Shown here: one piece after another, positions 75-26,732 of the stretch | Layout of the letters: each line of letters starts with the position of its first letter | Numbering within the stretch: the first letter of the stretch is position 1 | The notes under the pieces: model-generated | Told to the model about the DNA's origin: nothing | The model's database searches: none | What the model saw: only the letters and a program-made list of their open reading frames with translations | From: Cocleimonas sp. | GTDB taxonomy: Bacteria > Pseudomonadota > Gammaproteobacteria > Thiotrichales > Thiotrichaceae | Assembly (NCBI GenBank): GCA_023146545.1 | Contig: JAGLBW010000008.1 | Location: 1 to 39,778 of the forward strand | Length of the DNA: 39,778 bases | Direction: 5' to 3' | Program-made: the position numbers and the translations under genes

Positions 75-380
75 ATGACTGATGGTGAATCTTCTTTTGA
101 AAATGATATAACTGATTTTATGGGTGAAATTAGCAATACCCTTAAAAATATGAACACACGCTTTGATCACATCGAAAATGAACTGTCTAATCAGGCAAAT
201 CAACTCAGCCATATTGATCATCAGTTGACTGATTTAGATCATGATATATCACGTTTGCGTGATCGAGTTACGGATCAAACAGCATCAAAGAGAATTATTG
301 ATCAGCGAGGTTTAAATCCATCGGTTGATCGGTTTAGTGGTGGTGCTAAATTGGTTGGTGATAATCGACGTGTAAGATAA
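75..380 (+). CDS. Small hydrophilic coiled-coil protein, function unknown
   Basis: This 101-residue protein has no signal peptide and no membrane segment. Residues about 15-70 show heptad-like spacing of Ile, Leu and Met (ISNTLKNM, IENELSNQ, LSHIDHQLTDLDHDISRLRDRV), as expected for a coiled coil that oligomerises or scaffolds. The last 30 residues are basic and Gly-rich. It lies 22 bases upstream of the membrane protein at 403 on the same strand, so the two are probably co-transcribed and the membrane protein may be its partner. The Shine-Dalgarno is weak (GGG about 11 bases before the ATG). I do not recognise a family; the upstream genes lie outside the window. Confidence 0.6.
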   Translation: MTDGESSFENDITDFMGEISNTLKNMNTRFDHIENELSNQANQLSHIDHQLTDLDHDISRLRDRVTDQTASKRIIDQRGLNPSVDRFSGGAKLVGDNRRVR

Positions 381-402: not shown

Positions 403-1512
403 ATGCTATCTCTTCAGCCGTTTAAAGAATGGTTTGCTTTAAAGTATGAGAATATTCGATTATTATTATCACCTAAATTTCCTTTTCTACTCGAAGTGCA
501 TTATCGGGATGAACAGGTAATAGATATTGATTATGATGATTATGCCAATGTGCATGTCTCCCCGCCAGGGTTAGAAGGAGGCAAGCCGAAATCTGGTGCA
601 CCTCCAATAACAAAATATGATTTAATTTTAAACCCAATTGGTCTAAAATTTTGGCTTCGTTTATTTTTTATTGTAGGTATAGTAAGTTACTTACCACTTG
701 TAGCTTATAATGCCTTTAGCAAAGAAAATTTATTCTTCTCTTTTTTGTTCTTTCTGCCCTTGGTTTTATATTCATTAATCTTTCTTTTATTTGATTATTT
801 AATTTATTATTATCACCGGAAGAAAGTATTGTTTTCTCAAATATGGCATAAATTACAAAATAAAAACACAGAGAATAGTTTTCGTCTTTGGTTTAGAAAA
901 ATACCACAACGCGTTTATTTACATAAAAGAGACGAAGGTCTTGCTTGGTGGGGTATGAGAAAAAAAAGATCCCTTATTTTAGAGCCATTGGCTATACGAA
1001 TGCCAATTAATATATCAAAAGCAGGATCCGCGCAAAAAAGCTTATTGGTTACTGCAATGCAACGGCATTTTTCTAACCTAGAACGGGGCCATTTTTTATT
1101 TTTTACAGGTGAATTTAATATTTACCTGTATATGATGTCCCCTCTCATCATCCCTGTATTAATTCAGTTTTTTTATATTATTATTATTTTCATTTTTCTT
1201 CCTTATTATTCAGAGAGTGGTTTTCCTTCAATACTTTTAATCCCTCCTGCTTTCCTATTTATTACTTTATCTATTTTTTATATTTTTTGGATAAAACGTT
1301 TTATAGAGGAGCGTAAAAATGACCACGATAGTTATAAAAAATATATGCCTGCTGCAGTTCAGTCTTATATTAATTACGACTCTCATTTTTATGATTTTTA
1401 TGATAAAAAAGATGTTATCGTTAAATTGACATATACAATTGTTACGGTTGTTTTTTCAGGACTTATTTTTTTAATTTCAATTCTTAATTCATATAACCCT
1501 CCCAAAACCTGA
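403..1512 (+). CDS. Five-helix integral membrane protein, function unknown
   Basis: The 369-residue product starts with about 80 soluble residues including an acidic patch (DIDYDDY), then has hydrophobic helices at about 85-103 and 110-137. A basic loop of roughly 100 residues rich in Arg, Lys and Trp follows (RLWFRKIPQR, AWWGMRKKR), then helices at about 246-268 and 276-298, a charged segment, and a last helix at about 342-361. The loop is probably cytoplasmic because it is strongly positive. No catalytic motif is visible. The ATG has no obvious Shine-Dalgarno but lies only 22 bases after the coiled-coil gene, so translation may be coupled. It is convergent with the large metallopeptidase-like gene. 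Function unknown. Confidence 0.7.
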   Translation: MLSLQPFKEWFALKYENIRLLLSPKFPFLLEVHYRDEQVIDIDYDDYANVHVSPPGLEGGKPKSGAPPITKYDLILNPIGLKFWLRLFFIVGIVSYLPLVAYNAFSKENLFFSFLFFLPLVLYSLIFLLFDYLIYYYHRKKVLFSQIWHKLQNKNTENSFRLWFRKIPQRVYLHKRDEGLAWWGMRKKRSLILEPLAIRMPINISKAGSAQKSLLVTAMQRHFSNLERGHFLFFTGEFNIYLYMMSPLIIPVLIQFFYIIIIFIFLPYYSESGFPSILLIPPAFLFITLSIFYIFWIKRFIEERKNDHDSYKKYMPAAVQSYINYDSHFYDFYDKKDVIVKLTYTIVTVVFSGLIFLISILNSYNPPKT

Positions 1513-1545
1513 AAATCCTATTGAGGTTAAAATAGAGGGTTTTTT
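1512..1545 (+). terminator. Probable terminator of the 403-1512 gene
   Basis: Immediately after the stop codon, an interrupted stem (AAAATCC and TATT pairing with AATA and GGGTTTT across a small bulge) runs into a T tract. It lies in the 50-base gap between two convergent genes. The stem is imperfect, so confidence is moderate. Confidence 0.4.
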
Positions 1546-1562: not shown

Positions 1563-4500
1563 TTACAACGTATAATGTTTTTTTATTGATGTTTTTGTGT
1601 GATCAACGAATTTGTGTCGGCTTATCCTTGATATGATTTCGGTTAATTTATATTGATTGTAATTTGCAGTTTTACTGATTGTTATTTCAAAATCAGTAGC
1701 CCCCATAATTTTGTAAAATTTTAATGAAAACTCTGGATAATCTTTACTTATTTTTGTTAGGTATTGACGGAATAGTTGGTTGCTTAAGGTTAGGTGTCTA
1801 TCCTCAAGCATTCTGATTGAAAGTGAAAGAAGGTAGTCCTTATTATTGCTAAAGGTATTTTCTGCATGATGGAGCGTTTCTGACATCAATGTTAATCGTG
1901 TTCGATCAACCATACAATCTTGATAAATTGCATTTTGAAGTGTATAAATATTATTAATTCTATGATTTATTTTTTCTGGGTTATGTTCAGGGCTCATAAA
2001 AACAATAAGAATATCACCCCAACCATCAGTGAGAAAAGCACAATCTTCAGCATCGTTTAAGCATTGAGGGTTCCATTGCGTTTGAAATAATTTTCCTGTC
2101 CAGTCTAATAAATATTCGTGTGGATATTCTTGTGATATAGGGGTGTTTTTACAGGCCATTCTTAAGCGGTGTAAAAACGATAAACGATAGCCCCTTTGCT
2201 TTAATATAATTTGTAAAGTAGCAATTGGTTTTAACTGCGTGAAATTTCCAGCCCATTTCCCTTTTCCTAATTTGAAAGGAATAGACATCTCTCGTCTAAT
2301 ATTAAAATTGTAAAAATTTTCTTGTTTTTGATCCTTTTCAATGTCTATTTTTTCTTTATCGCGGTCTAAATAACCAATATAAGGAAGGTCGCACCGGCAC
2401 ATAGAGAGTGCAGGGTAGATGCTAAGAATATCATAGCGCCCTAAAGTCATTGAGTAATGTTTATCAAGTTGATTTATTTTATTCTTTATTCTTATATATT
2501 TATTTTTATTATTGATTACCGAATAAACATTTTTATTATGGATCTCAGACGGGTAAGGTGACGATACGGCAATTTTACCAATCATATAATTAGTACACCC
2601 TTGATCTTTATCGAAATCTTCATGCACTTCAAAGCCCCTGACGGTTTCCTCTACTGTATTTGCATAGGATAATTGATGATTGCTAGAGGTGCTTTCGAAT
2701 TGTTCATTTGTTGCCAGTTGTATAAAGAAGACCAGTTGCGATATTTCTGGTATTTTTTTATCATCAATCTTTAAAATTATTTTATTAATATCGATAAGAA
2801 TGTGGATGTATCTTTCATCTTTTTGGTTTTCAGAGCGATTATTCTCATCTAGTTTTTTTAACTTGTCTTCTATTTCTAAGAATTGATCTTGAGCACTTTT
2901 CAATAGCTTTGGATAGGCTGGCTTTATTAGAGGGATTTCTTTTAATAAATTAAGTACGGTATAACATTTATCTTTAGGAGAGTCAGCATCATGAAGATAA
3001 AATTCTAAAGCCAGTGAAAATAAATCTCGCCCAAAAGGAAAACCATAATGGAGTTGTTGTAATAGGTCGTTATTTTTAATGATTTTATTTGTTTTTTTAT
3101 TATCACTTGGTTTCCAAAGTAAATCATGCGAGCGTAACATTCCCACTTGCCACGGAATATCATAAATATAACGATATAAACCTGATGGGTTAGCATGACA
3201 GGGGATCTCAAGGGGGATCTCAATATCATAAAAAATCTCCGCTTTTATTTTTAGCTTACGATAATAAGCTAATTTTTTAGCTGCTGTTAAATTGGCGATA
3301 TTGTCATTGAGTTGGTTGCTTTCAAAAGGTCGGCCTGATAATGTTTTTTGCCATAGCTGTCGTCTTGCTAAGGTTTCTCTTGCTGTGTTGAATAATCGAG
3401 TAGTGCTGTCCCGTTTATAATATTTTTCGGAATGATTTTCTTTCTTGGAATATCGTCGATCAACTTCTTTTGTTCGTTCTTGCTTCCACTCTTTAACCGT
3501 AGAAATTGCTTTTGATGACTTTAATATATTACACATTTGTTGCGTAAAATCGTGCCAGAATAATTCATAATCAATACTGCTCGAAGTTGCTGCAAGTGAA
3601 TGATAATAACAATGTATTTCTTTTAGTGTTTGTTTTAACCCTTCTAATAGTTTTTTCTCTAATGTTGTCGTCTGATCACGGTGATGGGTTAATTCTATCC
3701 ATGTGATAATAAGGTGCAATCTTAAGTAAAAGGTACGCCTTTCTTTAGGTGAACGAGAATCAGTGGCTATAGAGGTTCGCAATGTATCTAATAGGTGTGT
3801 ATCAAGATTGCCACGGTCATCTTGTAATAAACCATAAATGGCCTCTTCATTTGACATTAATTGTAAAAAAGCCGCAAAAAGATAAGAGAAACCTTCAATA
3901 CTTGCCGCTAATAGATCACAACAAATTTCTTTAATAAAATCATGTGAAGGCATTAGCCAGTAAGCAGCATCGGTATTGCTAAAATCGGCAAGCTTGGTTT
4001 TAAGACGGACTAATAAATAGGTGAAGTCGTCCTCTTGAGAAGACAGCATCGATTCAGAGAGATTATCAAGGTGGAGTTTGATTTTTGCATGAGCAACTTC
4101 ATGTGCGATGGTAGGTTGTAGATCAGGACGTTCTGGCATCCAATAATCAGTGCTGATATTGGTGATAAAAGACTGTTTTCCGTTGGATAAATTGACTCTG
4201 AATGAAATAGATGAAGATGAAAAATCATGAGACCAATTATGTAACGTTATGCTTTCTTCGTCTTTATTTTCAATGCCTAGTGCTCTTAATAAAGCGGTTA
4301 TTTCATGGTCTAAGCTGACAGTGCGTCGATCAAGAAAATCGGTATAAACACCCAGTTCTCTTCGTCGTCTAAGGCTTGATTGCGGCAAACCTTCAGACAA
4401 AACATCAATGACACGACCGAGCTGGCTTTGATAGTGACTGAGTTTATTCACGTAGTTATGTGCAGCATGGTACAAAATAGCACCTCTTAAAACCATAAAT

Positions 4501-5054
4501 TCAGCTCTAGAGTCTCTAGGCATCAGATAAACATCATCAACTGATTCTCGATGTTTTGATAGACATGATTTGAAAAGAGCGTGATGGGTTAAGACTAATT
4601 TATCCCTAAAAATTTTTCGTTTGAGATGTTGTATTGCCTGCAAGGTATAATAATTGCTGTATTGTTCTTTTCCCCAAAGGCTTTCCTCAAACACGCTGCT
4701 AATGATGTGATGAAGGCGGTCTCTAATGTCTTGATTTTTTTTGAAATCAGTCGTTGACTGTTGGTATGATTCAAGATGATAAGGGTGAGGGTAAGCGACC
4801 ATCCAACGATTGACTAAATCAGAGGGTTCACTTTTTGATAGGTCGTGATCCCAATCATCTCCCCACAAATATTTTTCCTCATAGCGAATGGCATAGAGTA
4901 ATTCGGGTACGCGTAATGTCGATATAATATTAACTTGTAAATGCCGTGCTTCAAGCAATAAGGTGTCCAGACGATCCAAGGCATCATACCAACTTAATAA
5001 ATACAGTTGTGATGCACCTTCTAAAGCCTTTTCGTTGTTATTATCGTTCCCCAA
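1563..5054 (-). CDS. Large protein with gluzincin-type HExxH zinc-metallopeptidase site
   Basis: The 1163-residue product contains IAHEVAHA with His318, Glu319 and His322, the HExxH zinc-binding and catalytic motif. About 54 residues later comes KEICCDLLAA, with Glu376 and Asp380 placed like the ExxxD third-ligand helix of gluzincins such as M48 peptidases. The motif lies about a quarter of the way in, between an alpha-helical N-terminal region and some 780 C-terminal residues that I cannot assign. There is no signal peptide or membrane helix, so it is probably cytoplasmic. The start is TTG, supported by a strong Shine-Dalgarno (GGGAGG-like, 5064-5070 on the reverse strand) and by the absence of an in-frame ATG until residue 85. 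It is convergent with the coiled-coil and membrane-protein pair. Zinc peptidase activity is inferred; substrate and pathway are unknown. Confidence 0.75.
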   Translation of the reverse strand: MGNDNNNEKALEGASQLYLLSWYDALDRLDTLLLEARHLQVNIISTLRVPELLYAIRYEEKYLWGDDWDHDLSKSEPSDLVNRWMVAYPHPYHLESYQQSTTDFKKNQDIRDRLHHIISSVFEESLWGKEQYSNYYTLQAIQHLKRKIFRDKLVLTHHALFKSCLSKHRESVDDVYLMPRDSRAEFMVLRGAILYHAAHNYVNKLSHYQSQLGRVIDVLSEGLPQSSLRRRRELGVYTDFLDRRTVSLDHEITALLRALGIENKDEESITLHNWSHDFSSSSISFRVNLSNGKQSFITNISTDYWMPERPDLQPTIAHEVAHAKIKLHLDNLSESMLSSQEDDFTYLLVRLKTKLADFSNTDAAYWLMPSHDFIKEICCDLLAASIEGFSYLFAAFLQLMSNEEAIYGLLQDDRGNLDTHLLDTLRTSIATDSRSPKERRTFYLRLHLIITWIELTHHRDQTTTLEKKLLEGLKQTLKEIHCYYHSLAATSSSIDYELFWHDFTQQMCNILKSSKAISTVKEWKQERTKEVDRRYSKKENHSEKYYKRDSTTRLFNTARETLARRQLWQKTLSGRPFESNQLNDNIANLTAAKKLAYYRKLKIKAEIFYDIEIPLEIPCHANPSGLYRYIYDIPWQVGMLRSHDLLWKPSDNKKTNKIIKNNDLLQQLHYGFPFGRDLFSLALEFYLHDADSPKDKCYTVLNLLKEIPLIKPAYPKLLKSAQDQFLEIEDKLKKLDENNRSENQKDERYIHILIDINKIILKIDDKKIPEISQLVFFIQLATNEQFESTSSNHQLSYANTVEETVRGFEVHEDFDKDQGCTNYMIGKIAVSSPYPSEIHNKNVYSVINNKNKYIRIKNKINQLDKHYSMTLGRYDILSIYPALSMCRCDLPYIGYLDRDKEKIDIEKDQKQENFYNFNIRREMSIPFKLGKGKWAGNFTQLKPIATLQIILKQRGYRLSFLHRLRMACKNTPISQEYPHEYLLDWTGKLFQTQWNPQCLNDAEDCAFLTDGWGDILIVFMSPEHNPEKINHRINNIYTLQNAIYQDCMVDRTRLTLMSETLHHAENTFSNNKDYLLSLSIRMLEDRHLTLSNQLFRQYLTKISKDYPEFSLKFYKIMGATDFEITISKTANYNQYKLTEIISRISRHKFVDHTKTSIKKHYTL

Positions 5055-5063
5055 GTGTTATAT

Positions 5064-5070
5064 CCTCCCT
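5064..5070 (-). promoter_or_regulatory. Shine-Dalgarno fixing a TTG start
   Basis: On the reverse strand an AGGGAGG-type ribosome-binding site ends nine bases before the TTG at 5054. It is the best match in this region and the reason for placing the metallopeptidase-like start at a rare TTG. Confidence 0.6.
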
Positions 5071-5433
5071 TTTAAATGACTGCTTTTAAAATCAAGCACA
5101 AATGTACGGATACTATCAATATAATAGTTGATTCAGACGAGGTGTTTTAATGATGTTTTTTTCGGAGGTTAGTATAAAGGCTTACTTTTATTAAGTCTTT
5201 ATTTTATAACGAATATGACTAAAGAGAGTATAAAAAATTAGAGGTGTTTGTTTTAAATTGTTTTAAATCAATTATTTATAGGTTTATAAAGGGTGATAAT
5301 TTTCATGGATTGAAATAGAGCTTCACACTAATAACACTAAGGAAAAAGTCGATTATTTTTTCTTCCTTCGTCTCTTTTATTACGTTAAAAACTAATAATA
5401 ACAAGCAAATAGACGGGTTACTTTAGGGAGCGA
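5071..5433. other. Non-coding gap between two minus-strand units
   Basis: This stretch separates the end of hslR from the start of the large metallopeptidase-like gene. It must hold the latter's promoter, but I could not pick convincing -35 and -10 boxes. An imperfect inverted pair, AAGGAAAAA and a T-rich TTCTTCCTT, lies near 5339-5369. I see no gene here. Confidence 0.4.
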
Positions 5434-5862
5434 TTAGCCTGCACTTTTAAATCGAATAATCTTACGTCGTTGTTGTTTATTCGGTTTTTTATCAGACCTG
5501 ATTCTACTGGCATTTTGTATTTTTCGCATGGCATGTTGTTGTTCACGTTTTTGTATGCTTTCTTCCGTTTCAATATATAATAATTGTGCTTCTTTAGCGG
5601 GGCGGCGTTTGTCGTTAATCCCTTGGATAGTGATATGGTATCGGTCAACACCACGTGTTACGTTTAATTGATCACCGATGTGTACTGTACGCGAGGGTTT
5701 AATACGAATTCCATTTAAATGAACTTTACCACCATTAATGGCCTCGACGGCTACGGTGCGGGTTTTAAAGATTCGGGCTGCCCATAGCCATTTGTCGAGT
5801 CTAAGTTCGGTTAATTCGGGTTTTATGTTTGGTTTTTGTTTTTTTCTTCGATTAGTGGCCAT
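5434..5862 (-). CDS. hslR: Heat-shock protein 15, S4-domain RNA-binding protein
   Basis: The 142-residue protein has an S4 RNA-binding domain at about residues 18-70 (LRLDKWLWAARIFKTR, then AINGGKVHLNG and the hydrophobic GDQLNV segment), followed by a very basic C-terminal tail. Known HslR binds stalled 50S subunits carrying peptidyl-tRNA and helps recycle them after heat stress. Length and layout match the family (about 130 residues). It overlaps the upstream YcgN-family gene by 40 bases and is the last gene of a three-gene overlapping minus-strand operon, so it is probably translated by coupling. Confidence 0.93.
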   Translation of the reverse strand: MATNRRKKQKPNIKPELTELRLDKWLWAARIFKTRTVAVEAINGGKVHLNGIRIKPSRTVHIGDQLNVTRGVDRYHITIQGINDKRRPAKEAQLLYIETEESIQKREQQHAMRKIQNASRIRSDKKPNKQQRRKIIRFKSAG

Positions 5863-6308: not shown

Positions 6309-6972
6309 CGTGGAGTGGTGATGCTTTTTGTGTGGGTTGTACGATTTTCATGGGAAGTATGGCTTTTAAACGAGGAAAGTCTTTTGGCGCAACATAGTAA
6401 AAAATTTCACCCCCTTCGGTATCCCACAGTAGTGCAATGCCTTTCTGGGGAAATAATCGGTATTGTGCTGTTTTAGTGACGCTAATGGTCTCTTCAGGTT
6501 TGCCAAAAAATTTAATTTGTTTTTCTTCATATTGACCTGTTGGCATATAGACCATCCGCCAGACCTTCATTTGCAAGGCTTTATTGCCTGCGGCATGGCT
6601 GATTTCATATTTCCAATTATTATTCGGTGTCGCATCACGGTCTTTGGCCTGTTTTTTCTCTGTTTGAAGGAAAACATCACTGGCTTCTAAGTCAGCAACA
6701 ATGCGTCCTTCTAAGATACCGCCAACCCCTACTTTGCCAAAGTAAGCTTCCAAATTTAATGCTCCTTTGGGGGTTTCAAAGAGGCTGACTTCAGCCGCTT
6801 TGTGCAAGCCAATGCTGAGTGCTTGAAGGGTAACATCTCCAATGGGGATACCAAAAACTTCGGTTGCGCCTGTGGCTGTTACCGCTGTCTTCCACGGTAG
6901 TTTGCTGGTGTCTCTTGGTTGTGAGTCACAAGCGGTTAGTAGTATAAACAATACTAAAAAGAGTGGCTTCAT
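6286..6972 (-). CDS. Predicted lipoprotein, function unknown
   Basis: The 228-residue precursor has a short signal peptide ending in the lipobox LLTAC, with Cys15 as the lipidation site. The residue after it is Asp, which in enterobacteria signals retention in the inner membrane. The mature part has no recognised motif. It looks like a compact beta-rich periplasmic domain (GVGGILEGRIVADLEASDVFLQ, IFYYVAPKDFPRLKAILP) with a charged tail. It is the first gene of an overlapping operon with the YcgN-family gene and hslR, and is divergent from citrate synthase. Lipoprotein status is well supported; its role is unknown. Confidence 0.75.
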   Translation of the reverse strand: MKPLFLVLFILLTACDSQPRDTSKLPWKTAVTATGATEVFGIPIGDVTLQALSIGLHKAAEVSLFETPKGALNLEAYFGKVGVGGILEGRIVADLEASDVFLQTEKKQAKDRDATPNNNWKYEISHAAGNKALQMKVWRMVYMPTGQYEEKQIKFFGKPEETISVTKTAQYRLFPQKGIALLWDTEGGEIFYYVAPKDFPRLKAILPMKIVQPTQKASPLHDDKKPNE

Positions 6973-7115
6973 AACATAATCCGACTTATGAAAGAGAGTA
7001 AAGAGGTATTAACCCTATTATGAACAGAGTTTAGCTGCATTGTATCAGTATTACTTGGTGATGGATTGAGACTATCTGCTATTATCGCCATCTTGATAAA
7101 AAGATAGGTATTTTC

Positions 7116-8420
7116 ATGAGCAAAAAGGATACAGTTACACTCATCGACAATTCAACAGGGAAAGAGATTGAACTTCCTATCTTGCACCCTACTAATGGTA
7201 TTTCGACAATTGATGTGCGACAGCTTTATCGTAAGCTGGGTTATTTTACTTATGATCCTGGTTTTCTATCAACAGCAAGTTGCCACAGTTCGATTACTTA
7301 CCTTGATGGTTTAAACGGTGAGTTGCAATATGGGGGTTATCCTATTGAACAATTGGCAGATCACAGTAACTTTTTAGAAGTCTGTTATCTGTTGTTGGAG
7401 GGAGAATTACCGACAAAGGAAGAGTTCGCTGAATTTAAAACAATTATTACTGAGCATACGATGTTGCATGAAGCCTTAAAGCGCTTCTATAGTGGTTTTC
7501 GTCGTGATGCTCATCCAATGGCGATTATGGTCGGCGTGGTGGGTGCATTGTCGGCATTCTATCATGATGAGATTGATATTCATGATCCTAAACACCGCAT
7601 GATTGCCGCGCATCAGTTGATTGCTAAAATGCCAACCATTGCGGCATGGAGTTATCGCTATTCTCACGGCTTGCCATTTGAATATCCGCGTAACCATCTC
7701 GATTATGCGAGTAATTTTTTACATATGATGTTCAGTTTGCCGACTGTAGCCTATGTGCCTGACCCTGTTTTTGTAAAAGCTTTGGATCTTATTTTCATTC
7801 TTCATGCCGATCATGAACAAAATGCGTCCACGTCTACCGTACGTTTAACAGGAAGTTCTGAGGCTAACCCTTTTGCAGCGATATCAGCAGGTATTGCTTC
7901 GCTTTGGGGTCCTGCACACGGGGGGGCTAATGAAGCAGTGATTCGGATGTTGACTGATATTGTGGAATCAGATAATGACGTGGAATATTATATCGAACGG
8001 GCTAAAAATAAAGATGATCGGTTTCGTTTGATGGGCTTCGGACATCGTATTTATAAGAACTATGATCCACGCGCCCGAATTATTCGTAAAACTTGCCATG
8101 AGCTATTAACGGGACTAGGCTCTAGTAATGAGTATAGTGATCTATTCAAGGCGGCGATGGAGCTAGAACAGATTGCGTTAGAAGATGAATACTTTATTTC
8201 GCGCAATCTTTATCCTAATGTTGATTTTTATTCGGGTATTATTTTATTAGCGATGGGTGTTCCTCTCAATATGTTCACCGTTATTTTTGCTGTAGCGCGT
8301 ACTGTGGGTTGGGTTTCACATTGGGATGAAATGATCCAAGATCCTGAATCACGCATTGGTCGCCCACGTCAATTATATGTGGGTGCTTTACCGCGAGACT
8401 ATCCAAAAGATAGCGATTGA
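7116..8420 (+). CDS. gltA: Citrate synthase (type II)
   Basis: This enzyme condenses acetyl-CoA and oxaloacetate to citrate, the entry step of the TCA cycle, in the cytoplasm. The 434-residue length and the N-terminal domain (ELPILxPTxGxxxIDVR) match the hexameric, NADH-sensitive type II enzymes of gammaproteobacteria. The catalytic triad is visible: His268 in [11 protein letters not shown], His310 in [13 protein letters not shown] and Asp370 in [10 protein letters not shown]. The [10 protein letters not shown] motif is at about 230-239. The gene is divergent from the lipoprotein operon and followed by a DUF2892 gene and a terminator. Confidence 0.97.
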
Positions 8421-16035: not shown

Positions 16036-19000
16036 ATGAATAATACTCCATTTAAGCGTAAGCCATTGGCGCGTTGGGTTGCTTTTGCCTTTGCCGCAAC
16101 GACTGTTGCAGGTGTCGTTCAAGCGGCTGCACCTTTAGCAGGTACAGAAATTAAAAACCTTGCAACTGTTAGCTATGAAGATGAAAACGGTAATAAATAT
16201 ACTGCACAATCAAATGAAGCCGTTATTACCGTTGCTCCACAATATAGAGCGACGCTTGAAAATGATAAAACCTTAATATCAAGTGCAGGACAAACCGTTT
16301 ATTTTGCACATATTTTGACAAATATTGGTAATGAAAAAGACACTTATCAACTGGCAACAACGGCTGTTGATAAAAGTGGAACGAATGTTAATCCTGCCAT
16401 TACAATTTATAAAGACACCAGTGGTAATGGTCAGCCTGATGCAGGAGAGCCTGAGATTACAAGCCTTTCTCTATTACCGGGGAAAAGTAGTAGTATTGTT
16501 ATTGCTTATATCGTACCCGCAAATGCCCTTGAAGGGGATACGGTTGATATTAAGCTAACCGCAACTTCAGTAGAGACAGGTGCTATAGTTAAAGATATTG
16601 GTGATAATGGTGATGGTGATACTGATGATATTTCAGCGACAAATGATGATAAATTAACAATTAGCAGTGGTTCAGTTTTGGTACTGAATAAGCAATCTGT
16701 AATTGATACGACCCAGCGTAAAGTTACCTATACCTTGACCCTTAAAAATACAGGCAGTACTGCAGCAATCAATGTTGATATTTTGGATGCTTTACCTAAA
16801 GTCGATACGAATGGTGATGGTACTTTAGATACTCAAACAAGCTTAATTGCAGGGTCTATTCTTACAAATGGTTTGCTTGATTCTAGTGATGTAAAAGCAG
16901 TTGAGACAGATGAAACAACATTGGGTGTTGATGTTGATGGCGATAATGCGACGGATGGAACTAAAGTTATTCATGCCTTTGATAACACGTTACCACCAAA
17001 TACAACAATTTCGATTGAATATTCGATTAATTATGAAGACACATGGGCAGCATTAGGCAGTATTGAAAATACCTTTACCGCATTTGAAGATCCTGATGGA
17101 GACCATTTGCCACCAACAGGAACAACACCGCCAAAGTCGAATAAAACGCATGATGAAGTACCTCAAAATTATGGTGTTAACGTTCGAGATGATGGGACAA
17201 CAGCTACTGTTAGTAAGGGCGTTAATGATGGTGGTGATGATAATACTGATACCAATACAGATGGTACAGGTGATGATGATATTCAACATGTTGATACTAT
17301 TTCATCAGGTGATACGGTCGTTTTCACACATACTGTTGAAAATAAAGGTAATGGTGATGACAAATTTAACTTGATGATTGACAGCACTGACTTTCCCTCA
17401 GGAACTGTCTTTACCTTCTGGAATGCGGATGGTTCAGTACAGCTGACGGATAGTGATGGTGATAATGTACCTGATACGGGTGTTTTGGGTCAAAATAAAA
17501 CCATGAAAATTGTGGTTAAAGCGGATCTACCTTCAGGGGTTTCAAAAAGTACTGAAAGTACTGCAACCATTAGTGCCACTTCCTCGGCAGACCCTGCAGC
17601 AACAGGGAATAAAAAAAGTGATGTCACAACCCTAACCTTAGGTAGCATTACAGCCCCTGCGGTTGATTTGTCTGCTGTAGGTGCAACACAGCCTAATACA
17701 GGGTTTAATGATGGTGGTCTAGAAAATGCTCATGATGAAGGACCTGTTTTCTTAAAACAAGGTTTGGTGGGGGGTACTGTTACTTTCCCGATGAGTGTTT
17801 CTAATGAAGCAGGTAGTCCAGACTCTTTCTTATTGAGTTATGCTAAGTTACCAAGTGGTTGGACGGTTGTTTTTAAAGACAATAGCGCAACAGCAAGCAA
17901 GGGTGATACGATTACTTCAACCCCTTTTATTCCTGCTGGAAAAACCTTTGAATATATTGCTGTAGTGAGTGTTTCAAGTGCCCCCGCACAAGCTTTGGCT
18001 AATTCAGACCGTACAGCGGATGTTGATGGGCATGATATAACTAACGATAATGGTTCTGTGCTTGCGGGTGCGGATACTGATAAAGATTATGTGATTGACT
18101 TTATCGTGACGTCTGCTGTTGATGATACACGTAAGGATAGTATTTCTCATGCGATTGATGTCGCTGATATTAAATCCATTGAAATTACACCTGATGGACA
18201 AAATCAGATTCAACCTGGTGGAACTATTGATTATCCACATAAATTAAGCAATAACGGTAATATTGATGAAGCGGTTGAAATTGTCGCCTCAAATAATGAT
18301 CCTGACTGGAACTCTAGAACATTAATTAAGAAAGCTGATGGCACATTGGTTGAAGTAACTAACCTTAAGTCAGGTGATAGCGTTTTGGTGAATAACCCTG
18401 ATGGAACAACAACACCCGTTACGTTAACCGATACTGATGCGGATAAGATTGTTGAATTTTCTTTAAAGCCAGGACAGTATATTAATATTATTGATACTGT
18501 TTTTGCCCCTGCGGTTGCAGCGCAAGGTGAAACGAATACAACCTTAATTAAAGTAACGAATACTGATGGCACTGATCGTAGCTCATCAAAAGATAACACC
18601 AATGTTATTTTAGGTCAGGTTCGTTTGGTTAAGAAAGTTGCATTAGATGTTAATTGTGACCATACCGCTGAGGGTGCTTTTGCAGAAATACAACCGTCAA
18701 AAGTACAGCCAGGTCAATGTGCTATTTGGCAGATTACAGCAAAGAATGAAGGTGATGTGCCAGTCAAAAATGTGATTGTGAATGATTCTATTTCCGCTTA
18801 TACCGATTATGTTGCGGGTTCGTTACGCATTGCTGGTGTGCAAGCTAATCCAACCGATGCTGTTGGTGATGACCAAGGTGAAATGGATGCGGCAACAAAT
18901 AAAGTAACCTTCTATTTAGGTGATGATACTGACTCGTCGAAGAAAAAAGGCGGTGAATTAAAGTCAGGTGAGTCCGCTGTTGTACAATTTACGGTTAAAG

Positions 19001-19044
19001 TTGAGGGTGGTATTACAGCCCCCACAGCACCCGTTACAAGATAA
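16036..19044 (+). CDS. Large secreted DUF11-repeat surface protein
   Basis: The 1002-residue precursor has a signal peptide ending near VVQA (about residue 30). The mature N-terminus is a module shared with the two other large proteins of the locus: PLAGTEIKNLATVSYEDENG, then VAPQYRATLENDKTLISSAGQTVYFAHILTNIGN. DUF11-like sandwiches follow at about 210-340 (LTLKNTGSTAAINVDILDALP), 400-510, 580-680, 710-850 and 860-995. Calcium-loop-like motifs are DTSGNGQPDAGE, DNGDGDTDD, DTNGDGTLD, DVDGDNATD and DSDGDNVPD. It is acidic and Thr/Ser/Asp-rich, and has no LPxTG, PEP-CTERM or membrane anchor, so attachment must rely on other proteins. The C-terminal 130 residues resemble those of the 904-residue protein. 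It is probably extracellular and structural or adhesive. Confidence 0.85.
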   Translation: MNNTPFKRKPLARWVAFAFAATTVAGVVQAAAPLAGTEIKNLATVSYEDENGNKYTAQSNEAVITVAPQYRATLENDKTLISSAGQTVYFAHILTNIGNEKDTYQLATTAVDKSGTNVNPAITIYKDTSGNGQPDAGEPEITSLSLLPGKSSSIVIAYIVPANALEGDTVDIKLTATSVETGAIVKDIGDNGDGDTDDISATNDDKLTISSGSVLVLNKQSVIDTTQRKVTYTLTLKNTGSTAAINVDILDALPKVDTNGDGTLDTQTSLIAGSILTNGLLDSSDVKAVETDETTLGVDVDGDNATDGTKVIHAFDNTLPPNTTISIEYSINYEDTWAALGSIENTFTAFEDPDGDHLPPTGTTPPKSNKTHDEVPQNYGVNVRDDGTTATVSKGVNDGGDDNTDTNTDGTGDDDIQHVDTISSGDTVVFTHTVENKGNGDDKFNLMIDSTDFPSGTVFTFWNADGSVQLTDSDGDNVPDTGVLGQNKTMKIVVKADLPSGVSKSTESTATISATSSADPAATGNKKSDVTTLTLGSITAPAVDLSAVGATQPNTGFNDGGLENAHDEGPVFLKQGLVGGTVTFPMSVSNEAGSPDSFLLSYAKLPSGWTVVFKDNSATASKGDTITSTPFIPAGKTFEYIAVVSVSSAPAQALANSDRTADVDGHDITNDNGSVLAGADTDKDYVIDFIVTSAVDDTRKDSISHAIDVADIKSIEITPDGQNQIQPGGTIDYPHKLSNNGNIDEAVEIVASNNDPDWNSRTLIKKADGTLVEVTNLKSGDSVLVNNPDGTTTPVTLTDTDADKIVEFSLKPGQYINIIDTVFAPAVAAQGETNTTLIKVTNTDGTDRSSSKDNTNVILGQVRLVKKVALDVNCDHTAEGAFAEIQPSKVQPGQCAIWQITAKNEGDVPVKNVIVNDSISAYTDYVAGSLRIAGVQANPTDAVGDDQGEMDAATNKVTFYLGDDTDSSKKKGGELKSGESAVVQFTVKVEGGITAPTAPVTR

Positions 19045-19599
19045 AATAGACTTAATTGTAACGATAATATTACATTTCTTACCCCTTTAAGGTACTGATA
19101 AGTTTTTTATTTGGGTGAGCAGTGTAATAACAATAATATGATAGGTATTTATTCTAAGCCTTTGATTAAAAATAAAGGGCTTAGAATAAATATCGGTTCG
19201 ATTGTAAAACAGTAAAAATAAAACAAGGTGGGTTTCCCCTTTTGTAATGGTTTTTATTAAAAAATCATTAGCATATGCCTAAGTTTTGTTGGTATTTGGT
19301 TATTGTCACTTTTCAGCTGATTTTTTAATGTGGATAGTTAATGCAGATAGAAGGAAAAATAACAAAAAGGGGACATTAATTATCAAACCTCAACAGCGCC
19401 TAAACCCATAAAAATAATGTAGGTGTAATTAATAAATATCTTGATGGAGTCAGTTTTTTGTTCACTTTGAACAGCTTATTCCACAGGGTTGGATATTGTC
19501 TTATTTAATTTTCCTTAAAAAACTCAAAGCATAATGGCTTCCTGTCCAAAATAATGGGGTTGTTTTGAGTCAAAAATAATAAAAATAATGGTGGTAAAA
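19045..19599. other. Long non-coding gap inside the surface-protein locus
   Basis: These roughly 550 bases separate the 1002-residue gene from the giant barrel gene. They contain a strong hairpin (19146-19192), listed separately, and AT-rich sequence with no supported gene. The length suggests a second promoter or an untranslated regulatory leader for the giant gene, but I could not identify convincing boxes. Confidence 0.45.
19146..19192. repeat. 15-bp perfect inverted repeat (hairpin)
   Basis: TATTTATTCTAAGCC (19146-19160) and its exact reverse complement (19178-19192) flank a 17-base centre whose TTT and AAA add further pairing. No U tract follows. It could stabilise the 3' end of the upstream mRNA or act as a weak terminator. 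Confidence 0.7.
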
Positions 19600-22500
19600 A
19601 TGCGGGCTAGTTCTCAGGTTTGGCATAGTTTTCTTTCAATATTGTTACTGGGTATGGTAACCCTTTTGCCCGTTATGGCGGGTATTCCTCCAGCAGGGAC
19701 AAGTATTACCAATCGCGCTGAAGTGTCTTGGTTTGATCCACAAGATGGTTTGGTGAAAAAACGCTATTCCAATATTGCGATTATTATTGTTGCTCCTCAA
19801 TTTGGCGTATTATTTGAAGATAATAATAGACGTTATGCCAGTTCAGGACAAATTGTAGATCTACCTCATCGTATTAAAAATATTGGAAATATTGCTTCTA
19901 GTTATACGCTGCAAATTAAACAAAAAACCTCTGATTCGGGTAACTTGAAAAATATTGAAGTGTTTATTGATCTGAATGGTAATGGGGTTGTTGATCAAGG
20001 TGAAGAGAAATTATTTCCTATTGATTGTCAACAAGATGTGAAAGATAAAACGTGTTATTCCTTGCCACAGTTAAACACGGGGAAAATCGTTCAATTTGTT
20101 ATTCGGGGAGGCACTTCAATTAATGATCTGATTGGTGATACTTATAGTATGAGTGTTTCCGTTATGCCCTTAGACCATCCCGACAAAATCAAAATACGGC
20201 AGAATACGGTAACAGTGATTGAAGGCGCTAATATCAACATCATAAAAACGGTTGGTCCTGTTTGTGGGACACCGATTAAACCGAATGAGATTGTTAAATT
20301 TACGATTAACTTTAATAATGTGGGAGATCAAGAGCCAATAGCTAACGAGATTGTAATTGATAATGAGTTATTGTCTGGGGTTGTTGTGGAAGATACGATT
20401 CAAGCTAATTTAGTATTACAAAAAACAACACCATTGCCGATACATGCACCCGTACAATCTATTTTATTAGTTCAATTAGTGGAAAATAATAACAGCAACC
20501 GTTGGGTGAAGTTTGAAACATGGGATGGAAAAGCGGTTGTCAGCAAAATAGGCTTATTCCTTCCTGTATCAGAAATGAAACAGAATCAAAGTGGTAAATT
20601 GGTTTATCAGTTAACCGCGAATAATAAAATAATCTCACGTACTGTTTCAGGGGCTGCGACTTTAAACTTAGGGAAAACTGTGTTTAAGAGTAATAGTGTT
20701 TGTGTCACCTTAGCGCCTAATTCAAAGGAAATTGAAGGCAGTAAAGAAAACGCCAAAATTCGTTTTCTTACGCCACGTTTTGATTTAAAAAAGAAAAATC
20801 AAGCCCCAGATTTTTATAATGATGATGACTTTAAAGATGCGAGCTTCTATCGTATGGATCATGACAATAGCCATTATCAAGTCGCACGTGATGGTGTGTA
20901 TATTGAAGTACATTCAACGGGTTTGAATGATGATGATGCAAACGTTGAAATACATACCGTTAAAATAAGTTCAGGTAAGGGTGATACACTTTATGTGGTG
21001 ATAAAAGAAACGGGGGTGAATACAGGAATCTTCAGAGCCATTCGCCCGATTCGTTTAAGTGTCAAAGATAAAGGTGCAGGACAAACATGTCCTGCGGGGA
21101 AAAATAAGCAGGTACTTTATAATAATATCATTGATGGCAGTTGTACCTTGCAAGGGAGTCCTGATGGCGCTATTCAAGTCAGCATGGATGATCCCGGTGT
21201 GGGTACGTTGTTAAAGGATGCTGCCTTAATTGATCCTTTAGGAATTGTTTTTGATGCTGCCTTTAATACACCGATTAAGGGAGCGACTGTTGTGATTCGC
21301 ACCCCTAATGGTGAGATTGCAATAGACCCTTTAACTGACGAACCCTATGAAATTCAACACACTAAAGAAGATGGAAAATATCAATTCCCCTTCCTTTTTC
21401 CTGGTTATTATTATATTGATGTAGTCGCCCCTAAAAATTATAGCTTTCCCAGTAAAATGAAAGCAGAGGTCTTTAGGAGTAGAGAAGTGAACCAATATTC
21501 TTATGGTAAAGATGGTTATTACAGTACGCTAGGATCAGGGGTTTTTAAACTTGAATCGTTGTTGATTTCTGATATTCCACTTGATCCCAATGAAACGATT
21601 AAAAATGGGCTCGTGTTGACTAAAACCGTAGGCTCTGAAGTGGTTAGTGTCGGTGATTTTGTTAACTATTCATTGAAAATTGAAAATAAAACGGGACAGA
21701 ATCTATACGCAATAAAAGTGGAAGATCATCTACCCTATGGTTTTCGTTATGTTGAGGGCAGTACTTTTCTGGATAAACAATCTATTGATGATCCTGAGGG
21801 TGCGCCAGGTCCTATTTTAACGTTTTCCAACCTTTCTTTTAATAGTGCTTTAGATAAAAAACCGCATTTTTTAACGTATAAAGCCAGAATTTCTGCGGGG
21901 GGGATGGGAAGTGACGGTATCAATCGTGCCAAACTGATTGGGCGTACGATTACCAGTTATTACTTTAGTTCAAAAGAATCTGCTGCTAAAGTCAAAATAA
22001 GTCAATCTAATGTACTGGGTGATCACGGTATTATTTTTGGTAAAGTCTATGTTGATGCCGATTGCAGTAATCTTCAATCAGGGGGAGAGTGGCCCATCGG
22101 TGGGGTCAAAATCTATTTGGAAAATGGTACGTGGGTAATTACTGATGGTAATGGTCAATATAGCCTGTACGGTATTAAAACAGGTAACCATATGGTTAAA
22201 GTTGATCCAATTAGTTTGCCAGAAGGTATTATATTAAAACCATTGGATAACCGTAACATGGCAGATGGAGGGAGTCGTTTGGTTGATATGAAACGTGGTG
22301 GATTCCATCGTGCAGACTTTGCTGCTGCTTGTCCTAAAGAAGAAACTGAAATTATTTACGAGCAAATTATGGCACGTAATGGGGGAAATACTGATTGGAT
22401 GTTGGATCGTGCCAGCAAATATAATCCGTCTAAAACAACAAAAAATAACAATCTACCCTCATCCAGGGCAGATGGTGATCTTTCTAATGGTACGGTTGGT

Positions 22501-25500
22501 TTTATTAGAAATGCTTTAAAAGCTAAAATTGCGGCAGGAAAGGCGATTAATCGGGGATATTCCATCGAACTAGGGCGTTATGCTGATTCTGAAAAGGCAA
22601 AAAAAATGCAAGGGGGTTTACCCCAAACGATTCAATATAGAAGCTTTATTTATAAAACAGGGGATACCTACTCCTTACGGTTTAGTTTCGATTTAAAGAA
22701 AGCTAATATGGTTGCTTTACAATCTAAATTTAACGATAAATCCTTTAGACCTAAAGTCGTTGCTACGATTTATGAGCGTTTGCCTGATGCGGTTGTAGAC
22801 CGTTTAGAATCCTCCTCAACAGGGGAAACCATGTTGCAACCTACAGTGGCAGCGAAAACGATTACCAAAAAACAAGGGAGAGCAGGGACATGGTTATGGC
22901 CAAAAAATAAGATCAGCCTTGATGGTCGTTTTATGGCAGTGATTCGTTCTGGCATGGTGCCAACGTTACGGGTTAATGGCAAAAATATCCCTAAATCTAA
23001 AATTGGGGAGCGTATTTCAAACCGTCGAGAACGTGCTCAAGTGGTTGCTTGGTATGGTGTCGAGCTTAAAGCAGGTGATAATCAGGTTGAAATTTTTGCT
23101 AAAGATCCTTTTGGTAATTCACGTACCCTTGCTAAGGGTGTGTTTAGACGACCTGTTATGGCAGAAACGTTAACCTTTTCGAGTCATAAAGATGAGCTTC
23201 CAGCAGATGGAGGACGTTCTTATTTACCCTTAACGATTAAATTATTAGATGCAAATGGTCACCCTGCACGTGGTATTCACTTTGTGACGCTTGAAACGAG
23301 TGATGGCAGCTGGGTGGAGCGTGATATTCAAGATCAAACTAGAGGACATCAGGTCAGGGTCATGAATGGTGAGCGTGTTGTTCATTTACGTAGCTCTGAG
23401 CACACAGGGGATATTACATTGCGTGCCTATGATGGAAAAATGAAAGCGGAACTTAAAATCGTACAAACAGCCCCTCTGCGTCCCCTTATGGCGGCAGGTA
23501 TTTTCGAAATTGGAGCGAGTCGAAGTTATTTTAATAACCGTAAACAAGCCCCTTTATCACAGAAAAATGCAATAGAACGTCATGGACGTGCTGCCGTCTT
23601 TATGAAAGGGCGTGTTCGGGGTGATGTCCATTTAACCTTTGCTTATGATTCGGATAAAAAGGCGAAGGGTGAACGCTTTAGAGATATTAACCCTAATGAG
23701 CAGTACCCTGTTTATGGTGATGATTCTCGGCGGGGTTACGAAGCTCAAAGTCGCAGTAAATTGTATGCCAAGATTGAGAAAAATAAGAACAGCGTCATGT
23801 ACGGTGATTATTTGACTGATTCTAAAACTAATCATGACAGTGTGGCACGCGTACAACGCAGTCTAACAGGATTTAATGCCGTGATTGATACGGGTAAAAC
23901 CCGTGTTCAAGCGTATATTTCACGTCCTGAAGATGGTCATATTGCGAATGAAGAACACCGTGGCAAAGGCACTGCCTTGAATTATCGAATGCGTTATTAT
24001 CCGATTGTCCGTAATAGTGAAGTTCTTGAGATTGTAACCTACTCGCGTGATAACAAGGGCGTGGTCATTAACATTCGTAAAATGAGTCGGTTTGGTGATT
24101 ACAATGTGGATGATTTGACGGGTGATTTAAGCTTTAGCGATGTAATTCCTACTGTCGATGAGAATCAAAACCCTGTCTTTATCCGTGTTAGTTATGATGT
24201 AGAGGGTGATGGGGAGAAATATACCGTTGCTGGGGTAAGTGTCAATCAACAAATCGGCAAAAATTTGAATGTTGGGCTCAGCCATTCTTATGATGATAAC
24301 GCCAGCAAAGGGAAGACGGTGACAGGAATTTCTGCCGAATATAAAACAAAAGATACTCGTATTACGGCAAGTGTAGCGACATTGAAACACCGTGCAGAAA
24401 GTAAAAAACAAGCCAATGCTGTCCGTATTAGTGTTGATCATCAATGGAATGAGGGAGCTAAAACGAATGTTATTTATGGTCGTGCCGATCACGGTTATGA
24501 TAACTCATCAGGTGGTGTAACCGCAGGGCGGGAGGAGTTACGCGTTGCACACCGTCAACGTTTGACTAAAAATGTGGGGGTTAATGTTGAAGCTATCCAC
24601 AGTAAAAGTTTAACGAGAGCAGAGTCTGAACAGAGTGTTGGTGTAACAGCGGATGCTAACGTTGGGGACTGGACATTAAAAGCAGGGGCGCGCCACATTA
24701 AAAACACAAGGGATGAAGAACCTTTTAATACGATTATTGTCGGTGCAAAAGCCCCTATTAATATCGGTAAACGCAGAGGTAATGTCTTTGCAGAGTATGA
24801 GCAGGACATTAGTACGACAGAGCGCAAACGTATTGCAGTCGGTGCAGATTTGCAAGTGCATGATAAAGTGAAGTTGTATACCAAGGCAGAACAGATCAAT
24901 AGTGCATCAGGAGTGTCAGGGTTAACGAAAGGTCAGGCGCAAACGACATTCTCGGCTGGGGTTAGATCCAATATTTTACCCTCTACAGAAATCTATTCGG
25001 AGTATCGTTTACGTGGTACAACGACAGGGCGTGATCTGGAAACCGCATCAGGTATTAAAGGTGACTATGAATTAAAGAAAGGATTATCTGTTGCGCCCCA
25101 TTTGGAGGTTGTAAAAAACATTGAAGATTCAACAAAAGATTCTGTCTCCGTGTCATTAGGTGCAAAAGATCTGAGGGATAAAAATGCCCGAAAAAGTGGA
25201 CGTATTGAAGTGCGCCATACTGATAAGCGTGATTATGTGGGGGTAGAAGGAACGTATGTCTCCCGTTTAGATGAAGAGTGGAGTATGTTAATGCGTGATT
25301 CTGCCCGTTTTGATTGGAATCGGGAAAAAGAAGAGCTAGGATTTAATAATACCTTTTCCATTGGCTTATCCCTGCGCCCTCGTAATAGCAATAAACACAG
25401 CATGTTATTTTTGTATGAGAATAAAGTAAAGCGTGGTTTTGGTGCAGAAGAAGATTGCAGTAAAAATATTTTGTCCACACATCAAAGTTATAATATTAGC

Positions 25501-25971
25501 GAAACCTTGACGATTTCAGGGCGGTTGGGTGATAAATATACGGTTTGTTCTGATGAGGGTGTGAGTACTCACTCTAATACAGGATTGGTTGATGGGCGTT
25601 TGATTTGGGATATTAATAAACGCTTTGATATTGACCTACATGGGGGTGTGTTAACAACAAATTACTTTAAAGAAAGACAATACTCAGCAGGTGTAGGTCT
25701 AAATTATTTAGTTCGGGAAAACCTACGGGTGGGGGCGGGCTATAATATTAAAGGGTTTAGTGATGAAGACCTTGATAGTGAAGGCTATAACAAACAAGGT
25801 GTCTATGTTGGCATGCAGTATAAGTTTGATGAAAAAGATTTAGGTTGGCTCAGTGGTGAACAGCAGCCTGATCGTAACCGTGTAGAAATACCAACAAATA
25901 ACAATTATATTGATAATGACCGTCCTAAAAAAGGTGCTTTGGATACGGTTAAATCATGGTTTGGGGGATAA
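19600..25971 (+). CDS. Giant DUF11/SdrD-B-like outer-membrane beta-barrel protein
   Basis: About 2123 residues. After a signal peptide (WHSFLSILLLGMVTLLPVMA) comes the locus-specific N-terminal module (PPAGTSITNRAEVSWFDPQDG; APQFGVLFEDNN). DUF11-like sandwiches lie at about 210-370 and 670-800, carboxypeptidase-regulatory-like modules at about 540-625 (IKGATVVIRTPNGE...EDGKYQFPFLFPGYY) and 810-885 (FGKVYVDADC...GVKIYLENG...DGNGQYSLYGI), and an Ig/invasin-like domain at about 1195-1285 (LPADGGRSYLPLTIKLLDANG). From about 1297 to 2076 the chain alternates short amphipathic strands and turns, starting near YPVYGDDSRRGYEAQS and ending in GVYVGMQYKF, a typical outer-membrane terminal strand. A polar tail of about 45 residues follows. 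I start at 19600, where GGTGG gives the better ribosome-binding site; an ATG at 19588 is the alternative. An outer-membrane location is likely; the transport or display role is inferred. Confidence 0.85.
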   Translation: MRASSQVWHSFLSILLLGMVTLLPVMAGIPPAGTSITNRAEVSWFDPQDGLVKKRYSNIAIIIVAPQFGVLFEDNNRRYASSGQIVDLPHRIKNIGNIASSYTLQIKQKTSDSGNLKNIEVFIDLNGNGVVDQGEEKLFPIDCQQDVKDKTCYSLPQLNTGKIVQFVIRGGTSINDLIGDTYSMSVSVMPLDHPDKIKIRQNTVTVIEGANINIIKTVGPVCGTPIKPNEIVKFTINFNNVGDQEPIANEIVIDNELLSGVVVEDTIQANLVLQKTTPLPIHAPVQSILLVQLVENNNSNRWVKFETWDGKAVVSKIGLFLPVSEMKQNQSGKLVYQLTANNKIISRTVSGAATLNLGKTVFKSNSVCVTLAPNSKEIEGSKENAKIRFLTPRFDLKKKNQAPDFYNDDDFKDASFYRMDHDNSHYQVARDGVYIEVHSTGLNDDDANVEIHTVKISSGKGDTLYVVIKETGVNTGIFRAIRPIRLSVKDKGAGQTCPAGKNKQVLYNNIIDGSCTLQGSPDGAIQVSMDDPGVGTLLKDAALIDPLGIVFDAAFNTPIKGATVVIRTPNGEIAIDPLTDEPYEIQHTKEDGKYQFPFLFPGYYYIDVVAPKNYSFPSKMKAEVFRSREVNQYSYGKDGYYSTLGSGVFKLESLLISDIPLDPNETIKNGLVLTKTVGSEVVSVGDFVNYSLKIENKTGQNLYAIKVEDHLPYGFRYVEGSTFLDKQSIDDPEGAPGPILTFSNLSFNSALDKKPHFLTYKARISAGGMGSDGINRAKLIGRTITSYYFSSKESAAKVKISQSNVLGDHGIIFGKVYVDADCSNLQSGGEWPIGGVKIYLENGTWVITDGNGQYSLYGIKTGNHMVKVDPISLPEGIILKPLDNRNMADGGSRLVDMKRGGFHRADFAAACPKEETEIIYEQIMARNGGNTDWMLDRASKYNPSKTTKNNNLPSSRADGDLSNGTVGFIRNALKAKIAAGKAINRGYSIELGRYADSEKAKKMQGGLPQTIQYRSFIYKTGDTYSLRFSFDLKKANMVALQSKFNDKSFRPKVVATIYERLPDAVVDRLESSSTGETMLQPTVAAKTITKKQGRAGTWLWPKNKISLDGRFMAVIRSGMVPTLRVNGKNIPKSKIGERISNRRERAQVVAWYGVELKAGDNQVEIFAKDPFGNSRTLAKGVFRRPVMAETLTFSSHKDELPADGGRSYLPLTIKLLDANGHPARGIHFVTLETSDGSWVERDIQDQTRGHQVRVMNGERVVHLRSSEHTGDITLRAYDGKMKAELKIVQTAPLRPLMAAGIFEIGASRSYFNNRKQAPLSQKNAIERHGRAAVFMKGRVRGDVHLTFAYDSDKKAKGERFRDINPNEQYPVYGDDSRRGYEAQSRSKLYAKIEKNKNSVMYGDYLTDSKTNHDSVARVQRSLTGFNAVIDTGKTRVQAYISRPEDGHIANEEHRGKGTALNYRMRYYPIVRNSEVLEIVTYSRDNKGVVINIRKMSRFGDYNVDDLTGDLSFSDVIPTVDENQNPVFIRVSYDVEGDGEKYTVAGVSVNQQIGKNLNVGLSHSYDDNASKGKTVTGISAEYKTKDTRITASVATLKHRAESKKQANAVRISVDHQWNEGAKTNVIYGRADHGYDNSSGGVTAGREELRVAHRQRLTKNVGVNVEAIHSKSLTRAESEQSVGVTADANVGDWTLKAGARHIKNTRDEEPFNTIIVGAKAPINIGKRRGNVFAEYEQDISTTERKRIAVGADLQVHDKVKLYTKAEQINSASGVSGLTKGQAQTTFSAGVRSNILPSTEIYSEYRLRGTTTGRDLETASGIKGDYELKKGLSVAPHLEVVKNIEDSTKDSVSVSLGAKDLRDKNARKSGRIEVRHTDKRDYVGVEGTYVSRLDEEWSMLMRDSARFDWNREKEELGFNNTFSIGLSLRPRNSNKHSMLFLYENKVKRGFGAEEDCSKNILSTHQSYNISETLTISGRLGDKYTVCSDEGVSTHSNTGLVDGRLIWDINKRFDIDLHGGVLTTNYFKERQYSAGVGLNYLVRENLRVGAGYNIKGFSDEDLDSEGYNKQGVYVGMQYKFDEKDLGWLSGEQQPDRNRVEIPTNNNYIDNDRPKKGALDTVKSWFGG

Positions 25972-25976
25972 TAATA

Positions 25977-26681: not shown

Positions 26682-26732
26682 TATTGTATCGCTTTTCGTA
26701 ATACCTAAAATAATGATAATAATAAGTGAAAA

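What the first reader, a model, noticed from the sequence alone, without database searches (positions are those of the whole stretch)
1563..5054. 1163-residue unrecognised protein with a gluzincin zinc site
HEVAH at 318-322 and KEICCDLLAA at 375-384 together look like an intact HExxH plus ExxxD metallopeptidase site, yet about 800 other residues match nothing I know. It is cytoplasmic by appearance, begins at a TTG behind a very strong ribosome-binding site, and faces a coiled-coil and membrane-protein pair. A stress or defence role is possible but unsupported by further evidence.
Basis: partly seen in the sequence, partly recalled or inferred. Interest (0 to 1): 0.6.

Follow-up and report, generated by a model that had tools for sequence, protein, structure and literature searches.

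The report
Unrecognised zinc-peptidase, membrane, coiled-coil gene trio
A large bacterial protein that matches no known family carries what looks like a genuine zinc-peptidase active site, belongs to a rare and widely scattered family, and travels with a membrane protein and a small coiled-coil protein as a probably mobile three-gene module whose job is still unproven.

Summary
The 1163-aa ORF (1563-5054, minus strand) has a TTG start behind AGGGAGG, HEVAH at 318-322 and KEICCD at 375-380, and no Pfam, NCBIfam, PADLOC, PDB, phage or plasmid match. The site is more than chance: all eight homologues outside one clade (22-37% identical over the domain) keep HExxH and ExxxD in register. The seven closest Thiotrichaceae relatives have lost it, as a single clade (support 99/99). 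The other two genes belong to it: a five-TM membrane protein beside the peptidase in most loci, and a small coiled-coil protein with a distinctive tail beside all 8 intact modules that could be checked and 0 of 5 degenerate ones. The module is rare (about 1% of Pseudomonadota sampled) and mobile in places: beside Tn7-like TnsC/TniQ-TnsD genes, in an element at a comM fragment, and at a synteny break in the window's genus. Defence is plausible, not shown. Folding gave no structural match, so the geometry is untested. Best reading: a new zincin-like family in a membrane-linked proteolytic module.

The parts
1563..5054 (-). Large protein (1163 aa, TTG start): helical N-terminal part, zincin-like peptidase domain (about 225-460), helical middle, C-terminal alpha/beta part
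4089..4103 (-). HEVAH, residues 318-322: predicted zinc ligands H318 and H322, catalytic E319
   Evidence: kept in all 8 homologues outside the degenerate clade
3915..3929 (-). E376-x3-D380 (of KEICCD): predicted third zinc ligand and supporting aspartate; D380 is invariant even in site-less relatives
   Evidence: aligned with the M48 ExxAD helix by hhalign
1566..2297 (-). C-terminal alpha/beta part (residues about 920-1163), low-confidence resemblance to two ferredoxin-like units; carries TDGWGDIL, and a GATDFEI motif that is (T)PGRTDYT-like in relatives
5064..5070 (-). AGGGAGG ribosome-binding site, 9 nt before the TTG
   Evidence: direct reading
75..380 (+). Coiled-coil protein, 101 aa, with basic tail ..AKLVGDNRRVR; a counterpart lies next to every intact module that could be checked
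403..1512 (+). Five-TM membrane protein, 369 aa; distant homologue of the one upstream of the peptidase in relatives

Best explanation
A three-gene accessory module built around a new family of HExxH/ExxxD (gluzincin-like) zinc metallopeptidase. The cytoplasmic peptidase works at the inner membrane with its five-TM partner. The small coiled-coil protein with a conserved C-terminal tail is its dedicated partner, most likely its regulated substrate or its activator: on a trigger the peptidase becomes active and cleaves that tail, or other host or invader proteins. Shown: an intact site shared with distant homologues, linkage of the three genes, absence of the tailed coiled coil where the site is lost, rarity and mobility. 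Inferred: zinc binding, peptidase activity, membrane tethering, the coiled coil as substrate or activator. Guessed (about 35%): the purpose is defence against phages or other mobile elements.
For: Site in register in the window and 8 homologues down to 22% domain identity. The seven site-less proteins form one clade, 99/99, and their catalytic columns drift while D380 and its surroundings stay fixed. hhalign with independently built M48 and M78 profiles puts HExxH in register, and for M48 the ExxAD helix too (M48: E 4e-4, prob 36%; M78: E 1.5e-5, prob 80%). Membrane gene directly before the peptidase on the same strand in L017, L018, L020, L021, L022, L030, L048, L054, L057 and L069, with a 2+2+1 TM pattern in several. 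Tailed coiled coil next to 8/8 checkable intact modules and 0/5 degenerate ones. Mobility: L057 follows a TniB/TnsC-type ATPase and TniQ-TnsD; L069 lies between a comM fragment and conjugation-type ATPases; the window trio lies at a synteny break after the conserved gltA-to-hslR block. The KAP NTPase after L055 matches PADLOC PDC-S20, E 6e-97.
Against: No biochemical evidence. No solved-structure match by sequence or fold. The hhalign scores are modest and partly driven by HExxH itself. The site/coiled-coil link rests on one evolutionary loss. Most neighbourhoods are housekeeping, not defence islands. The coiled coils are too short and low-complexity for homology to be proven, and the tails in L055 and L056 are acidic at the end rather than basic.
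Confidence: 0.7

Rival explanations
1. It is an anti-phage or anti-plasmid immune system: the membrane and coiled-coil proteins sense infection and unleash the peptidase, which cleaves an invader protein or shuts the cell down.
For: Rare, patchy, fast-diverging; beside Tn7-like genes, in a conjugation-type element, beside a KAP NTPase of PADLOC PDC-S20; a weak relative lies near a Bil system gene.
Against: No PADLOC model matches the window proteins or the distant members convincingly; most loci are alone among housekeeping genes; no phage or plasmid hit.
Confidence: 0.35
2. It is an envelope- or stress-response protease system: the membrane protein senses a membrane condition and the peptidase releases or destroys a regulator, possibly the coiled-coil protein.
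For: Five-TM partner directly upstream; coiled coil with conserved tail missing where the site is lost; housekeeping neighbourhoods in most genomes.
Against: Too rare and too mobile for a core stress response; no regulator domain recognised.
Confidence: 0.35
3. The HExxH is a relic: the family is a scaffold and the window copy is no longer enzymatic either.
For: Seven close relatives have lost the site yet keep a full-length protein and the membrane partner; no fold match to a peptidase.
Against: The window and 8 homologues, some only 22% identical to it over the domain, keep H, E, H, E and D exactly, and the site-less proteins form one clade.
Confidence: 0.15
4. The neighbours are there by chance or by an assembly join: in the window the genes converge instead of forming the usual operon, near a contig end.
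For: The window's orientation differs from most relatives; the contig begins 74 bases before the coiled-coil gene.
Against: L056 shows the same convergent order independently; L030, L048, L057 and L069 have coiled-coil, membrane and peptidase genes in a row.
Confidence: 0.05

Closest known systems
Peptidase family M48 (HtpX/Ste24/BepA type, Pfam PF01435)
   Same: HExxH, then Glu with Asp four residues on in a second helix; hhalign puts both in register
   Different: No Pfam match; no TM segment in the peptidase itself; large extra N- and C-terminal parts; score below confident homology
Peptidase family M78 (ImmA/IrrE type; CapP of CBASS CapH/CapP)
   Same: Cytoplasmic-type HExxH peptidase; HExxH helix aligns (hhalign 80%); L055 has a non-significant CapP hit (E 0.013)
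   Different: 54 residues from the second His to the Glu, and ExxxD after it, unlike the M78 sequences gathered here; no Pfam or NCBIfam match
KAP NTPases and PADLOC candidate PDC-S20
   Same: One module (L055) is followed directly by a KAP NTPase matching PDC-S20
   Different: Only one locus; the window has none
Zincin peptidase plus short-peptide (FxSxx-COOH) processing systems attached to VMAP/FtsH ternary conflict systems (PMC7159879)
   Same: Zincin-like peptidase with a small protein whose C-terminus is conserved and cleaved; suggests the coiled coil may be a substrate
   Different: None of the ternary-system components was recognised here; different proteins; an analogy only

Membership tests
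HExxH zinc metallopeptidase (zincin, gluzincin type) | HExxH with two His ligands and catalytic Glu | tested here: met
   H318, E319, H322; kept in 8 of 8 homologues outside one clade; in 0 of 7 inside it
HExxH zinc metallopeptidase (zincin, gluzincin type) | Downstream Glu as third ligand, with Asp at +4 | tested here: met
   E376, D380; kept in the same 8 homologues
HExxH zinc metallopeptidase (zincin, gluzincin type) | Zincin fold with the three ligands around one metal | tested here: inconclusive
   Models of mean pLDDT 55 and 70; the order strands, HExxH helix, Glu helix fits; no Foldseek match at E<=0.001; coordinates not available
HExxH zinc metallopeptidase (zincin, gluzincin type) | Zinc binding and peptide-bond cleavage | not testable with these tools
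   needs purified protein
Peptidase M48 | Match above the Pfam PF01435 cut-off | tested here: not met
   No M48 match for the window domain or 8 others even at E<=10; hhalign prob 36%
Peptidase M78 | Match above the Pfam PF06114 cut-off | tested here: not met
   hhalign prob 80% over the HExxH helix only
Known or candidate anti-phage defence system | PADLOC-DB model match to a module protein | tested here: not met
   (only generic coiled-coil hits and non-significant ones); only the KAP neighbour of L055 matches
Known or candidate anti-phage defence system | Regular location in defence islands or mobile elements | tested here: inconclusive
   L055, L057, L069 yes; L017, L018, L020, L021, L030, L048, L054 no
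Known or candidate anti-phage defence system | Protection against phage | not testable with these tools
   needs a plaque assay

The most novel reading that the evidence does not exclude
An undescribed bacterial immune module in which a five-TM sensor and a tailed coiled-coil protein control a giant zinc peptidase, with the coiled coil's conserved C-terminal tail as docking or cleavage site, and with a derived branch that became a non-enzymatic version after shedding both the active site and the coiled coil.
Probability: 0.3. Interest if true: 0.78.

Novelty: new variant of a known kind. Interest (0 to 1): 0.55.

Why it matters
HExxH peptidases are a known kind, but this family and its three-gene context are absent from every library searched here. 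The window sits in the same genus as relatives that have lost the active site, so one lineage offers a natural comparison of an enzymatic and a site-less version of the same module. The joint absence of site and coiled coil gives a concrete, testable guess for the substrate or activator.

Tried and rejected
Pfam, NCBIfam and PADLOC scans of the three window proteins: nothing (the coiled coil gives only generic coiled-coil hits). PDB by sequence with the protein and with the domain profile: nothing. Plasmids and phages with two divergent members: nothing. Viral contigs: nothing. CATRA/VMAP ternary conflict systems were considered from the literature and dropped: no library match. Full-length AlphaFold model (pLDDT 55): best hits are double ferredoxin-like folds, none at E<=0.001. 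Domain model (pLDDT 70): no useful match. The invariance of the five catalytic columns in A9 is not used as a statistic, because A9 holds only intact members. A six-term papers search found nothing, nor did PDC-S20 as a term.

Full report
Observation. The ORF at 1563-5054 (minus strand) encodes 1163 aa from a TTG. AGGGAGG lies 9 nt before it, and homologues begin at about the same place. HEVAH is at 318-322 and KEICCD at 375-380. No TM segment is predicted. Pfam, NCBIfam, PADLOC, PDB, plasmids and phages give no match.

Relatives. Eight of 95 related genomes hold a match with the single sequence, and 9 of 63 in the order with a profile, the window's own genome counted. They are Thiotrichaceae MAGs; one in the window's genus is named Cocleimonas sp. 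(the same 10,382-base contig). Two Ca. Thiosymbion genomes hold further copies. Wider sampling found one more gammaproteobacterium in 369 genomes (G235); three genomes of another class of Pseudomonadota (G526 with two copies, G529, G457); and two genomes of one further gammaproteobacterial family (G656, G973). The frequency is about 1% or less in the phylum and class samples.

The site. In the seven closest Thiotrichaceae relatives that cover it the site is gone: NPIAK, HEIAD, HEIAK, KEVAY, KYVAE, REVAV and HEVAN stand at HEVAH, and E376 becomes E, Q, V, D, H, I or K, while D380 stays. In Ca. Thiosymbion (HEVAH/ELACD), G235 (HEVAH/ELAVD), G526 (HEVAH/EIASD and HELGH/EIASD), G529 (HELGH/ELLCD), G656 (HECAH/EVWSD) and G973 (HECAH/EVWAD) it is intact and in register. 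A maximum-likelihood tree puts all seven site-less proteins in one group with support 99/99 and the window outside it; the tree is otherwise weakly resolved, has long branches and is not rooted by an outgroup. One loss of an ancestral site is the simplest reading. hhalign of the intact domain with M48 and M78 sequences gathered from relatives puts the active-site helices in register: M48 prob 36%, E 4e-4, including the ExxAD helix; M78 prob 80%, E 1.5e-5, HExxH helix only. These are one-against-one scores and partly reflect the motif itself.

Structure. The full-length model is poor (pLDDT 55, pTM 0.55, nine sequences) and the domain model moderate (pLDDT 70, pTM 0.72). Both show strands, then the HExxH helix, then the Glu helix, as a zincin needs. 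Foldseek finds no match at E<=0.001 for either. The best full-length hits are double ferredoxin-like folds, presumably the C-terminal 240 residues.

Membrane partner. A membrane-protein gene lies immediately upstream of the peptidase, same strand, in L017, L018, L020, L021, L022, L030, L048, L054, L057 and L069. In the window the pair converges instead (403-1512 against 1563-5054), as in L056. Window and relatives match by profile over residues 27-178 (prob 82%, E 1e-5), and the 2+2+1 TM pattern recurs in L018, L021, L030, L057 and L069. In L048 the membrane gene is broken into two ORFs. In L055 no such gene was seen; a KAP NTPase follows instead.

Coiled coil. Small coiled-coil proteins with a distinctive C-terminal tail lie beside the module in the window (..AKLVGDNRRVR), L030 (..GLIDPEWRWEREHPFRR), L048 (..SLVEPSGTFRRARPYRR), L054 (..GLVEPKNRYKRVRTHNRA), L057 (..HPKRVRVGYAG), L069 (..MPRRVRLGYTG), L055 (..DWRLYLDDD) and L056 (..RYRDSYDDG). 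That is all eight intact modules whose surroundings could be read. None was found beside the five degenerate modules that could be read (L017, L018, L020, L021, L022); L020:7360-7656 looks like UbiK and was set aside, from memory. The degenerate modules are one clade, so this is one correlated loss, not independent replicates.

Mobility and setting. In L057 the trio follows a TniB/TnsC-type ATPase and a TniQ-TnsD protein. In L069 it lies between what reads as a comM fragment and conjugation-type ATPases (named by reading, not by a search). In L055 a KAP NTPase follows, matching PADLOC PDC-S20 at E 6e-97. In G002, G006 and G012 the block from gltA to the S4-domain (hslR-like) gene is followed by a small ORF that reads like the ProS anticodon-binding domain, whereas in the window it is followed by the peptidase; so the trio sits at a break in local synteny. 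Elsewhere the neighbours are ordinary housekeeping genes. Defence is therefore possible, not shown.

A weak distant relative, a 454-aa stand-alone HEVGH/EELISD protein next to a dCTP deaminase and near BilD, was found in G1050 (E 2e-4; hhalign 86%). It may mark a larger superfamily.

Verdict. A genuine, undescribed zincin-like family in a three-gene module. Enzyme activity and biological role need the bench.

Noticed in passing
L075:5631-6995 (minus), L075:8249-9634 (minus), L075:5023-5634 (minus): A 454-aa stand-alone HEVGH/EELISD protein with no Pfam match, next to a dCTP deaminase and near BilD of a Bil system; a weak relative of this family.
   Followed up: partly
L055:262-1605 (minus): KAP NTPase matching PADLOC candidate PDC-S20 directly downstream of one module; that module's large protein is split into two ORFs (3386-5638 and 1608-3389), and a second coiled-coil gene with a similar DWxxxLDDD tail lies at 6772-7173.
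   Followed up: partly
window 16036-29447: Run of very large secreted proteins with repeated extracellular-type domains (1002, 2127 and 904 aa), plus an OmpA-like lipoprotein at 25956-26681; reads like a surface-protein cluster.
   Followed up: no
L048:7503-8970: The membrane-protein gene of this module is broken into two ORFs, either a frameshift in the assembly or a real break.
   Followed up: no
L022:5422-6549: CHAT-domain protein (Pfam E 2e-9) close to one degenerate module.
   Followed up: no
window 1497-1545: Possible two-stage hairpin followed by TTTTTT between the convergent membrane and peptidase genes; the terminator scan does not report it, the loop being long.
   Followed up: no
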